DNA from: an uncultured Lachnospiraceae bacterium
GTDB lineage: Bacteria; Bacillota; Clostridia; Lachnospirales; Lachnospiraceae
Length of the DNA stretch: 64,000 nucleotides
Assembly: GCA_949502235.1 (NCBI GenBank)
Contig: CATBDC010000013.1
Coordinates: forward strand, 1 to 64,000
Reading direction: 5' to 3'
Positions within the stretch are counted from its first letter, which is position 1; each line of letters starts with the position of its first letter. The notes beneath the pieces were generated by a model. It was given only the letters and a program-made list of their open reading frames with translations. It was not told the DNA's origin and ran no database searches. This document shows, piece after piece, positions 10,017-62,004 of the stretch. The position numbers and the translations under genes are program-made.

Positions 10017-10052
10017 TATATTCTTCTATGCATAAGGCATAAGTCTTCTGTA

Positions 10053-10146
10053 AGTTCCTACGCTGGCATTATCCAGATCAGGTATAAGAGTCAAAGAAGC
10101 ACTCCATTCTTTATCTCAGCCGGCTTGCCGCCAGCCCCTCTCTTAT
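10053..10146 (-). promoter_or_regulatory. TPP (thi-box) riboswitch
   Basis: Minus strand: GGGGCTGGCGGCAAGCCGGCTGAGAT...GACTCTTATACCTGATCTGGATAATGCCAGCGTAGGAA. Confidence 0.95.
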
Positions 10147-10246
10147 CTATTCAGTTTTCTGTGTACAGGCTTTAGTCTACACTCCCTGGGCAAAAATGTC
10201 AAGCGGGAAAAGAATTTTTCTCACCTTATCTGGCAACGTAACTAAG

Positions 10247-16996: not shown

Positions 16997-17088
16997 CATA
17001 CTTCTTTTGTTATAGAATAATCATACCACGTAATAAAGTGTTGTAAAAGAGAAAATATATGATATAATCACCTTGACCTTATTAAATC

Positions 17089-17221
17089 GTTACTGTTCAC
17101 TCCGTTCACAGCAACCTTCGCAAATCCATTTAAAATTCGCTTCGCGAATGGGATTTGCTCACGCCTGAATCATTTTCTTACGGACTTTGCAGTGAATGCA
17201 AAGTCCTGTGTGAACAGTAAC
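17089..17221 (+). mobile_element. MITE-like structured repeat, copy A (133 bp)
   Basis: GTTACTGTTCAC...GTGAACAGTAAC termini; internal stems GCAAATCCATT/AATGGGATTTGC and GGACTTTGCA-GTGAA-TGCAAAGTCC; flanked by 8-bp ATTAAATC (17081-17088 and 17222-17229). Confidence 0.85.
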
Positions 17222-17229
17222 ATTAAATC

Positions 17230-17375
17230 ATTACTGTTCACACCCTACGGGCGCTCCAGTAACGGCATCCGGCCACCTAAAAGTCACCTTCGGTGAGGGG
17301 CCGGATGCCCGATGGCCACTACTTCTTTGGCCGGACACCGTGCAGCGTGAAGCACGGTGCCGTGTGAACAGTAAC
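17230..17375 (+). mobile_element. MITE-like structured repeat, copy B (146 bp, divergent core)
   Basis: Termini ATTACTGTTCAC...GTGAACAGTAAC; stems GGCATCCGGCC/GGCCGGATGCC and CACCGTGC/GCACGGTG; followed by a third ATTAAATC (17376-17383). Confidence 0.75.
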
Positions 17376-17415
17376 ATTAAATCTTATATATTCAATGAAA
17401 GGACGGACAATAAGT

Positions 17416-18402
17416 ATGGATAAAATCAGGATAGGTATTGTTGGATACGGTAATATCGGGCGGGGAGTGGAACGCGCGGTTCTTAGGAATGAGGATATGG
17501 AGCTTAAAGCAGTATTTACGAGGAGAGACCCTTCTTCTGTAAAAATCGAAACAAGCGGCGTTTCTGTAAAGCATATGGATGAGCTTTCCTCCATGAAGGG
17601 CGAAATTGACGTCATGATACTGTGCGGCGGTTCTGCAACAGATCTCCCTGTCATGGGGCCGCAGCTTGCTGCAGATTTTAACACCATCGACAGCTTTGAC
17701 ACCCACGCCAGAATACCTGAGTATTTTGCCGATATGGATAAAGCAGCAAAGGACGGCGGGAACGTCAGCATTATCTCCGTTGGCTGGGATCCGGGAATGT
17801 TTTCACTTAACCGCTTATATGCAGAATCTATTCTGCCCCAGGGAAGCACCTACACCTTTTGGGGAAAGGGCGTAAGCCAGGGACATTCCGATGCGATCCG
17901 CCGTGTGGAGGGTGTAAAAAATGGAATTCAGTATACTGTTCCGGTTGATATGGCAGTAGAGCAGGTGCGAAGCGGAAATGAACCAGCGCTGACGACAAGA
18001 GATAAGCACCTTCGTGAATGTTATGTAGTACCAGAAGAAGGGGCAGACTTAAAGGCAATTGAAAAGGCAATTAAGACAATGCCTAACTATTTTGACCAGT
18101 ACGACACAACAGTCTCATTTATTACAGAGGAGGAATTAAAGGAAAAGCACAGCAGAATGCCTCACGGCGGCTTTGTAATCAGGAGCGGCGAAACGGGCAG
18201 CGAAGGGAATAAGCATATTATTGAGTATTCCCTTAAGCTTGATTCCAACCCGGAATTTACGGCAAGCGTGTTAGTCTGCTATGCAAGGGCGGCCTGCCGT
18301 CTGTCTGAAGCAGGTGATACGGGTGCGAAGAGCGTATTTGATATTGCACCAGGACTCTTGTCTATGAAAACAGCAGAAGAATTAAGGAAAGAAATGCTGT
18401 AG
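17416..18402 (+). CDS. ddh: meso-diaminopimelate dehydrogenase
   Basis: MDKIRIGIVGYGNIGRGVERAV...ISVGWDPGMFSLNRLYAESILPQGSTYTFWGKGVSQGHSDAIRRVEGV. Confidence 0.93.
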   Translation: MDKIRIGIVGYGNIGRGVERAVLRNEDMELKAVFTRRDPSSVKIETSGVSVKHMDELSSMKGEIDVMILCGGSATDLPVMGPQLAADFNTIDSFDTHARIPEYFADMDKAAKDGGNVSIISVGWDPGMFSLNRLYAESILPQGSTYTFWGKGVSQGHSDAIRRVEGVKNGIQYTVPVDMAVEQVRSGNEPALTTRDKHLRECYVVPEEGADLKAIEKAIKTMPNYFDQYDTTVSFITEEELKEKHSRMPHGGFVIRSGETGSEGNKHIIEYSLKLDSNPEFTASVLVCYARAACRLSEAGDTGAKSVFDIAPGLLSMKTAEELRKEML

Positions 18403-20815: not shown

Positions 20816-20873
20816 TGTAATGAATCGTAGCACATTCTCAATGAATATGTCAAGATAGAAATATTTACTCACA

Positions 20874-20928
20874 CCTGAATCATTTTCTTAGGTTTGTGCA
20901 GTAAATGCGCAGATCTGTGAACAGTAAC
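20874..20928 (+). repeat. Partial GTTACTGTTCAC-family repeat (right half)
   Basis: actcacacctgaatcattttcttaggtttgtgcagtaaatgcgcagatctgtgaacagtaac. Confidence 0.65.
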
Positions 20929-31398: not shown

Positions 31399-31528
31399 TA
31401 TTAATATATTTAATCCCTCAAACCCCTATATACAAATCTTATTTCATAATGCATATCTAATAGTATACCATAAATCTTCAATTTGTAAAACATTTTTTAC
31501 AAACGCGTAACCATTTCGTAATATTTAG

Positions 31529-31661
31529 GTTACTGTTCACTCCGTTCACAGTAACCTTCGCAAATCCATTTAAAATTCGCTTCGCGAATGGGATTTGCTC
31601 ACACCTGAATCACTTTCTTACGTACTTTGCAGTAAATGAAAAGTACTGTGTGAACAGTAAC
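31529..31661 (+). mobile_element. MITE-like structured repeat, copy C (133 bp)
   Basis: GTTACTGTTCAC...GTGAACAGTAAC; flanked by 8-bp ATATTTAG (31521-31528 and 31662-31669). Confidence 0.87.
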
Positions 31662-31669
31662 ATATTTAG

Positions 31670-32302: not shown

Positions 32303-32473
32303 GTTACTGTTCACTCCGCTTGTTACTGTTCACTCCGCTTGTTACTGTTCACTCCGTTCACAGTAACCTTCGCAAATCCATTTAAAATTCGCTCCGCGAA
32401 TGGGATTTGCTCACACCTGAATCATTTTCTTACGGACTTTGCAGTAAATGCAAAGTCCTGTGTGAACAGTAAC
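32303..32473 (+). mobile_element. MITE-like structured repeat, copy D, with 19-bp tandem duplication of its left end
   Basis: GTTACTGTTCACTCCGCTT at 32303 and 32322, then the 133-bp element 32341-32473; perfect stem GGACTTTGCA-GTAAA-TGCAAAGTCC. Confidence 0.85.
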
Positions 32474-58192: not shown

Positions 58193-58219
58193 GTTACTGT
58201 TCACTCCGCTCACAGTAGC
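58193..58219 (+). repeat. Solo left-end hairpin of GTTACTGTTCAC family
   Basis: GTTACTGTTCACTCCGCTCACAGTAGC. Confidence 0.7.
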
Positions 58220-60705: not shown

Positions 60706-62004
60706 TTAAAAGACGGTTTGTTTTTCTATGTCGGTAGATAATGCTCCAAGTGCTTTTGTTACTAATTCTTTTCTCACCCGGAATTCGTCTTTTTTTGACA
60801 GCTCCGGATTGCCGACTGGGTATGGGATCCCGACTGCCGGCACGATTCTGTTTGCACCTACTGCTTCTGAAATTGGAACGATTGAGCAGATGTGTACTGC
60901 CGGAATACCAAAGCTTTCTATTTCTTTCACCATCGTTGCGCCGCAACGTGTACATGTCCCTCAGTTTGATGTCAAAATGACTGCCTGGACATTATTGCGG
61001 AGCAGATCCTGCGCAATCTCTTCGGCGAATTTTTTTGCGCTGCTTACTGCGGTAGTGTTTCCTACGGTGCTGTAATATCTTCCGAACAGTTCCCCGATCC
61101 CTCCTTCTTTTTCTATTTCCCGGACCGCGTCCAAGGGGAGTACTCTGTCTGGATCCTCGGTTGCATATACCGGATCATAGCCACCGTGAACAGTCATGTA
61201 GTCCTGCCCGGTCAGATCATCACATTCGGAAATGTCATATATCCCGAAAGTTCCTGCGTTTGCAGAGGGAATGTGATCCGGATTGCCCTGGGGCACGATT
61301 CCGCCGGAGGTGACTAAGGCTATCCTTGCGTGCGCCATATCCTTTACTGCCGGAGCAGGCTTTACCCTGTCGAACACGGGCATAGGAAGCTCCGTGACAA
61401 AGGGTTCTCCCTTAAGCTTCTTTATTAGCATATCCACACCGCGCTCTGCCCCGTTTTTTTCTGTATGCACATTTACCCGGAAGCCCTGGGGAATGTATCC
61501 TTCCTCCTCTGGAAAGCCGATTTCTTTACCGTTAAGTAATTTTAAAGCCAGCGATGCCATCACCGGCAGCGTTTTTCGCATACTGCCTGCGGAAATACCT
61601 GTTTCTACGATATATATTCTGCTATGGAACATTTCCGCTCCCGGATTTTCCGGATATAATGCTGTTAATACCGGAATCGAAAACCTTTTTTTCACTTCAT
61701 CGCATATTGTCCCGCAGGCAAGTCCGTAGCGCCCGGCATTAAATCCTGGTCCGGCGATTACCATATCCGGACCCATTTCCTCTATCATTGCTAAAATCTC
61801 ACCCAGCGCTTCGCTCTGGTTGTCAGCAAAATAATTGTCTCCGCAGATAACTGTCGCGGTAATCTCTGCCTGTCCGCCAAGCAGAGCCGAAAGTCCTATC
61901 CCCGGTCCCACTGGGCCTTCCCGCAGCAGGGGCTTTTGTCCGGCAGCTTCCTCTGCGCCGATCTGCCCGTAAAACTGATTTATATAATGTACTATTTTTT
62001 TCAT
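60706..62004 (-). CDS. Glycine/sarcosine/betaine reductase protein B, GrdB/GrdF/GrdH-type selenoprotein (UGA = Sec at 60961-60963)
   Basis: ORF 62004-60961 ends ...AQDLLRNNVQAVILTSN-UGA and continues in frame GTCTRCGATMVKEIESFGIPAVHICSIVPISEAVGANRIVPAVGIPYPVGNPEL...KQTVF*, the canonical UxxCxxC region; 432 aa. Confidence 0.93.
60934..60948 (-). promoter_or_regulatory. bSECIS stem-loop candidate downstream of the Sec codon
   Basis: CGTTGC-GGC-GCAACG perfect 6-bp stem starting 13 nt after the UGA. Confidence 0.6.

What the first reader, a model, noticed from the sequence alone, without database searches (positions are those of the whole stretch)
17081..17383. Two tandem MITE-like elements with the same architecture but different core sequences, separated and flanked by the same 8-bp repeat
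Layout is ATTAAATC - element A (133 bp) - ATTAAATC - element B (146 bp) - ATTAAATC. Both have GTTACTGTTCAC/GTGAACAGTAAC ends, a long stem enclosing a short TTCG-type hairpin, a linker, and a second stem, yet the stems differ (GCAAATCC/GGATTTGC vs GGCATCCGGCC/GGCCGGATGCC; GGACTTTGCA/TGCAAAGTCC vs CACCGTGC/GCACGGTG). Conservation of fold without sequence suggests selection on structure. The repeated 8-mer is best explained by target-site duplication with a second insertion into the same target.
Basis: partly seen in the sequence, partly recalled or inferred. Interest (0 to 1): 0.8.

Follow-up and report, generated by a model that had tools for sequence, protein, structure and literature searches.

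The report
Nested IS66-linked bacterial mini-transposons
Two small non-coding jumping DNA elements of one large family, most likely moved by the enzyme of an IS66-type insertion sequence, landed one after the other in the same eight bases in front of a lysine-pathway gene; they belong to a hairpin-rich, modular repeat family found in many gut Lachnospiraceae.

Summary
The layout is real: ATTAAATC (17081-17088), element A (17089-17221, 133 bp), ATTAAATC, element B (17230-17375, 146 bp), ATTAAATC. Both are MITEs. The related species G001 has the uninterrupted site with one target copy, and most well-preserved copies elsewhere carry 8-bp duplications. Own genome: 353 terminus matches against 15 for the reversed control. 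A-like copies occur in 5 of 6 genomes searched in the genus and in 25 of 200 from the family.

The probable source of the transposase is a ~2.25-kb IS66-family, ISBst12-type insertion sequence with the same ends and perfect 8-bp duplications. The window's genome holds only cut or broken copies.

A-family stems covary strongly: 18 of 24 pairs change on both sides. But G-T and A-C mismatches are equally frequent (13 and 15), unlike a TPP riboswitch control (31 and 5; weaker by distinct event). Fold conservation is confirmed; RNA-level selection is not.

New beyond the finding: interchangeable modules, at least four core types, 27-bp duplication-flanked remnants, and preferential insertion at existing element ends, which explains the tandem. 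A new, elaborate variant of a known kind.

The parts
17041..17068 (+). promoter-like TTGTAA-16-TATAAT (TG before the second hexamer); the -10 part is conserved upstream of the orthologous gene in G001; both elements inserted just downstream of it
17081..17088 (.). target site duplication, copy 1 (ATTAAATC)
17089..17221 (+). MITE A, 133 bp; letter-for-letter identical copies at four other places in the own genome
17089..17115 (+). 5' module of A: terminal repeat GTTACTGTTCAC plus inverted partial copy ACAG(C/T)AAC; the same 27 bp also occurs alone with duplicated flanks
17120..17158 (+). A stem 1 (GCAAATCC/GGATTTGC) enclosing apical hairpin ATTCGC-TTC-GCGAAT; covarying
17182..17206 (+). A stem 2 (GGACTTTGCA/TGCAAAGTCC); covarying, while the linker before it is conserved
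17210..17221 (-). right terminal repeat of A (GTGAACAGTAAC)
17222..17229 (.). target site duplication, copy 2, shared by A and B
17230..17375 (+). MITE B, 146 bp; about 12 relatives in the own genome and one at 94% in another genus (G062)
17264..17309 (+). B stem 1 (GGCATCCGGCC/GGCCGGATGCC) with apical TTCG hairpin
17336..17359 (+). B stem 2 (CACCGTGC/GCACGGTG)
17376..17383 (.). target site duplication, copy 3 (ATTAAATC)
17395..18402 (+). diaminopimelate dehydrogenase-like gene downstream of the insertions
   Evidence: PF16654, 264 bits
16932..16996 (+). degenerate short relative (A linker plus stem 2 between TIR-like ends, no stem 1)
31529..31661 (+). another A copy in the window, duplication ATATTTAG, followed directly by a second partial element after the same 8 bp
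32341..32473 (+). another A copy, preceded by extra 19-bp repeats of its own first bases (32303-32340)
58193..58219 (+). solo 27-bp hairpin remnant, flanks match at 6 of 8
20870..20928 (+). solo 3' module (A linker, stem 2, right terminus)

Best explanation
A and B are non-autonomous mini-transposons (MITEs) moved in trans by the DDE transposase of an IS66-family, ISBst12-type insertion sequence, which recognises the shared 12-13-bp ends and makes an 8-bp staggered cut. One element (probably B, since A is identical to four other copies and B has an imperfect end) inserted into ATTAAATC in the presumed leader of a diaminopimelate dehydrogenase gene. The second then inserted into the same 8 bp, because insertions of this family are biased to sites at or within 6-9 bp of existing element ends. 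Inside the elements, hairpin modules are exchanged between copies and stem arms change together. This keeps the DNA palindromic, most likely by template switching between hairpin arms and/or a constraint on the DNA fold. Deletion between the internal ACAGTAAC and the terminal ACAGTAAC would leave the 27-bp hairpin seen alone at many sites. Shown: insertions, duplications, empty site, shared ends with the insertion sequence, covariation, chimeras, adjacency bias. Inferred: the trans-acting enzyme, the order of insertion, the deletion route, and the cause of covariation.
For: Three exact 8-mers. G001 has the uninterrupted site with a single target copy. 8-bp duplications with at most 1 mismatch at 53 distinct sites (examples). 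353 termini in the own genome against 15 reversed. Insertion sequences with GTTACTGTTCAC(A/T) ends, six distinct ones with perfect 8-bp duplications, 1984-2358 bp. Their transposase matches PF03050 at 76.7 bits (cut-off 23.1). The own genome carries relatives of this transposase beside GTTAC(T/A)GTTCACAGG ends on contigs C37 and C54. Adjacent elements: 9 of 12 spacers within 40 bp are 6-9 bp, 4 exactly 8; 4 of 53 duplications lie inside the terminal repeat itself, p = 2e-4. Covariation 0.283 against 0.091 shuffled and at most 0.059 slid. Solo 27-28-bp hairpins with matching flanks: 13 of 36 against 0.8 expected.
Against: No complete insertion sequence is assembled in the window's genome: one copy ends at a contig edge and the other is interrupted by a tyrosine recombinase gene. 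The transposase is below NCBIfam's IS66 cut-off (157.8 against 180). The MITEs share only the outer 12-14 bp with the insertion sequence, so mobilisation in trans is inferred. The adjacency count is small (12 pairs) and comes mostly from loci chosen for having a copy.
Confidence: 0.85

Rival explanations
1. The elements are kept for their RNA: once inserted in gene leaders or between genes, their transcripts fold into a regulatory or stabilising structure, and selection on that RNA causes the covariation.
For: Strong covariation with conserved linker and loop. A and B lie just after a promoter-like sequence, in the presumed leader of a gene. Sites tend to be upstream of genes (16 divergent, 5 convergent) with an orientation bias in tandem contexts (16 opposite, 5 same; p = 0.027).
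Against: G-T and A-C mismatches are equally common in core stems (13 and 15 cells; 10 and 12 distinct events), while TPP riboswitches in the same genus give 31 and 5 cells (7 and 3 distinct events). No Rfam family matches. The site is empty in G001 and the gene is still there.
Confidence: 0.15
2. A and B moved together as one composite A-8bp-B unit, rather than by two insertions.
For: One block with three identical 8-mers; tandem pairs occur elsewhere.
Against: The spacer equals the local target here (ATTAAATC) and another local target elsewhere (ATATTTAG at 31521-31669). A and B each occur alone with their own duplications. A composite would carry a spacer from its donor site.
Confidence: 0.03
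3. The elements are REP/BIME-like palindromes moved by a single-strand (Y1/RAYT-type) transposase.
For: Short, hairpin-rich, mostly intergenic, hundreds of termini.
Against: 8-bp target duplications and terminal inverted repeats shared with a DDE element. Y1 transposition does not make target duplications (established knowledge).
Confidence: 0.02

Closest known systems
IS66 family, ISBst12 group (ISDge4 of Deinococcus geothermalis, PMC12898284)
   Same: Single large transposase ORF of the IS66 family; 8-bp direct repeat; ends of the form GT(A/T)ACTG.TCA (ISDge4: GTAACTGCTCAGCA; here GTTACTGTTCAC, variant GTAACTGTTCAG).
   Different: No MITE of this group was found in the papers searched; here non-autonomous copies hugely outnumber the insertion sequence, which also has a 54-aa ORF upstream of the transposase.
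Pneumococcal BOX elements (PMC3049150)
   Same: Modular, hairpin-rich, high-copy MITEs with TIRs and target duplications, often bunched or inserted into one another (PMC10969869).
   Different: Modules here are a TIR hairpin, stem 1 and stem 2, not tandem boxB arrays; 8-bp duplication and an identified IS66-type partner. No sequence comparison with BOX was made.
Other bacterial MITEs (MITEPsy1, PMC3189936; QMITE2 of Coxiella, PMC10969869)
   Same: Short, ends like a resident insertion sequence (MITEPsy1); QMITE2 has 7-9-bp duplications and a strongly folding transcript.
   Different: MITEPsy1 is linked to an IS5-like element with 4-bp duplications; none of the papers read ties a MITE to IS66 or to Lachnospiraceae.

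Membership tests
MITE (non-autonomous DNA transposon) | terminal inverted repeats | tested here: met
   12-13 bp
MITE (non-autonomous DNA transposon) | target site duplication and empty site | tested here: met
   8 bp at many copies; empty site in G001
MITE (non-autonomous DNA transposon) | many copies, no transposase gene, ends shared with an autonomous element | tested here: met
   elements of 133 and 146 bp
MITE (non-autonomous DNA transposon) | mobilised in trans by that element | not testable with these tools
   needs a transposition assay
IS66 family (the partner insertion sequence) | DDE_Tnp_IS66 domain | tested here: met
   PF03050 76.7 bits, cut-off 23.1
IS66 family (the partner insertion sequence) | NCBIfam NF033517 curated cut-off | tested here: not met
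   157.8 bits against 180: a divergent member or sister group
IS66 family (the partner insertion sequence) | 8-bp duplication | tested here: met
ISBst12 group | single large ORF without tnpA/tnpB | tested here: met
   L114: 557-aa ORF and a 54-aa ORF on the transposase strand in 2248 bp; the 54-aa ORF was not scanned against families
BOX elements | boxA/boxB/boxC sequence modules | not tested
   compared with the description in PMC3049150 only; no alignment to BOX sequences was made
Rfam structured RNA | match to a curated family | tested here: not met

The most novel reading that the evidence does not exclude
The hairpin fold is itself required for mobility or copy number: the transposition machinery, or an intermediate, acts on the folded single strand, and the 27-bp terminal-repeat-only hairpins are the smallest mobile units of the system rather than deletion scars.
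Probability: 0.12. Interest if true: 0.8.

Novelty: new variant of a known kind. Interest (0 to 1): 0.5.

Why it matters
It identifies a probable enzyme for a hairpin-rich repeat family found across many Lachnospiraceae genera, so the family can be annotated, tracked between strains and tested. Comparing G-T with A-C mismatches gives a simple test for telling RNA-level selection from DNA-level palindrome maintenance in other bacterial repeats, where conserved folds are often read as RNA function. The insertion bias towards element ends explains shared-duplication tandems and bunched copies. The copies also lie at several contig ends of this draft genome, so they probably break assemblies.

Tried and rejected
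IS256 (PF00872) as the partner: absent from the own genome, and no suitable ends were found beside the two G001 copies. Classical IS66 copies in the genus do not carry these ends; only the weak matches on C37 and C54 do. Phage and plasmid collections: two short partial matches and none. Exact scans of viral contigs for the 27-bp hairpin and for the insertion-sequence end: none. Literature search for the terminus: no paper. A first TPP control had wrong strands and was redone. A single event inserting A-8bp-B was rejected because spacers match the local targets.

Full report
OBSERVATION. The sequence at 17081-17383 is as described: three exact ATTAAATC copies around two elements of 133 and 146 bp with shared termini. 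The only correction is that B begins ATTACTGTTCAC. Both strands of both elements fold much better than dinucleotide-shuffled sequence (z -5.4 to -8.2).

COPIES. The own genome (3.78 Mb in 101 contigs) has 46 matches to the 303 bp, about three quarters A-like and one quarter B-like. The 12-bp terminus with at most one mismatch occurs 179 times forward and 174 reverse, against 6 and 9 for the reversed pattern. A-like copies are in 5 of 6 genomes searched in the genus, the window's own included, and in 25 of 200 genomes of the family at this sensitivity. B is rarer: own genome and one other genus among 200, at 94% identity, which suggests recent transfer.

INSERTION. Most well-preserved copies are flanked by perfect or near-perfect 8-bp repeats (53 distinct sites with at most one mismatch). 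At the locus itself, G001 has the same gene (diaminopimelate dehydrogenase, PF16654) and an alignable upstream region that reads straight through the target with one copy. The insertions are therefore real. The first target base lies 13 bases after the end of a promoter-like sequence whose -10 region is conserved in G001, so the elements sit in the presumed leader of the gene. A is letter-for-letter identical to four other copies in the genome, while B has an imperfect left end and no identical copy among the loci in hand; I infer that B came first.

THE PARTNER. Searching for transposases with 8-bp duplications led to weak IS66 matches on contigs C37 and C54 next to GTTAC(T/A)GTTCACAGG ends. 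Relatives of that protein in 40 loci of named genomes and in other family members include insertion sequences of 1984-2358 bp with GTTAC(T/A)GTTCA ends at both sides. Six distinct ones have perfect 8-bp duplications (L114, L115, L125, L128 with its near-copies, L131, L161). The L114 transposase (557 aa) matches PF03050 over positions 29-276 and reads HTD, VHD and NNLAER at places that fit the catalytic residues of this family (my reading, not a test). It is below the NCBIfam IS66 cut-off, so it is a divergent member or sister group. A single ORF, an 8-bp repeat and GTAACTGCTCAGCA-like ends are reported for ISDge4 of the ISBst12 group (PMC12898284), the closest described element. L161 has ends close to those of B. 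In the own genome the C37 copy stops at a contig edge and the C54 copy is interrupted by a stretch with a tyrosine recombinase gene (PF00589).

WHY THEY ARE IN TANDEM. Among loci in hand, 11 or 12 pairs of neighbouring element ends lie within 40 bp depending on how overlaps are counted (the table sums to 11); 9 of the spacers are 6-9 bp, and 4 are exactly 8. In several of the shorter ones the duplication takes in the last one or two bases of the neighbour's terminus. Four of 53 duplications match the terminal repeat itself (L016, L185, L234, L240; chance 0.0055 per site, p = 2e-4). So insertion is biased to existing ends, and the finding is one case of a general habit. A second case lies in the window at 31521-31669.

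MODULES. The elements are built from a 5' module (terminus plus inverted partial copy), a stem 1 module with apical TTCG-type hairpin, a linker with stem 2, and the right terminus. Other core types share this plan: type C in G141 and G107 (142-143 bp, L251, L252, L255) and type D (L016:1690-1836), which has A's linker but different stems. Chimeras exist: L251:1926-2069 joins A's stem 1 to C's stem 2, and L207 has a B-type 5' module on an A core. In L071, L072, L075 and L076 the terminus begins GTAA at the left end and the internal copy changes with it; in three of the four the right end changes too.

COVARIATION. On 55 distinct A-type sequences, 95.7% of stem cells are standard pairs, 18 of 24 pairs have two-sided changes, and the covariation score is 0.283 against 0.091 in shuffles and at most 0.059 when slid. 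The 5' hairpin also covaries. But G-T and A-C mismatches are equal, 13 and 15 cells (10 and 12 distinct events). These are complementary on the two strands, so selection on RNA from one strand should favour one of them. In TPP riboswitches of the same genus the counts are 31 and 5 (Fisher p = 0.001 on cells), though only 7 and 3 as distinct events, and cells are not independent. The evidence therefore leans towards DNA-level palindrome maintenance or template switching between hairpin arms, but does not settle it.

REMNANTS. The 27-28-bp 5' module occurs alone at 36 sites examined; 13 have flanks matching at 6 or more of 8 bases, against 0.8 in shuffles, and one in another genus is perfect (L242). 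Only one of the 13 own-genome cases is perfect, so they look old. A contains ACAG(C/T)AAC both at the end of this module and at its right end; deletion between these direct repeats would leave exactly this scar. I prefer that to independent mobility of a 27-bp element.

CONTEXT. With a crude gene call on joined flanks, 42 of 52 scored sites are intergenic, with more divergent than convergent sites (16 and 5) and an orientation bias in tandem gene pairs (16 and 5, p = 0.027). This is weak and may reflect intergenic lengths.

VERDICT. The finding is correct in substance and is best described as two MITEs of a large, modular, IS66(ISBst12)-linked family, nested by end-directed insertion. I found no description of this family in Rfam or in the literature searched.

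Noticed in passing
window 32303-32352: Three head-to-tail starts of the A element (GTTACTGTTCACTCCGCTT, 19 bp) before a full copy: end-proximal slippage or repeated end-directed events.
   Followed up: no
L016:1690-1836: Type D element (147 bp, GTTACTATTCACGG ends) inserted with 8-bp duplication ACTGTTCA inside the terminal repeat of another element; shares A's linker but has different stems.
   Followed up: partly
L251:1501-1643, L252:1501-1642, L255:1501-1643: Type C elements in other genera (G141, G107), same 5' module and duplications, different core; G141 has many copies of the 5' module.
   Followed up: partly
L071, L072, L075, L076: Terminal repeat variant beginning GTAA, changed together in the left terminus and internal inverted copy (and at the right end in three of four), suggesting co-evolution with a different transposase.
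   Followed up: partly
G000 contig C54 (L104, L113): Copy of the insertion sequence interrupted by a stretch of about 3.4 kb that includes a tyrosine recombinase gene (PF00589); could be another mobile element.
   Followed up: no
G062:C2:39869-40012 (L289): B-type copy at 94% identity in another genus although B was not found in the other 198 genomes sampled: probable horizontal transfer.
   Followed up: no
window 60923-60960 and 10038-10151: SECIS_4 element and TPP riboswitch at Rfam gathering thresholds; unrelated to the finding.
   Followed up: no
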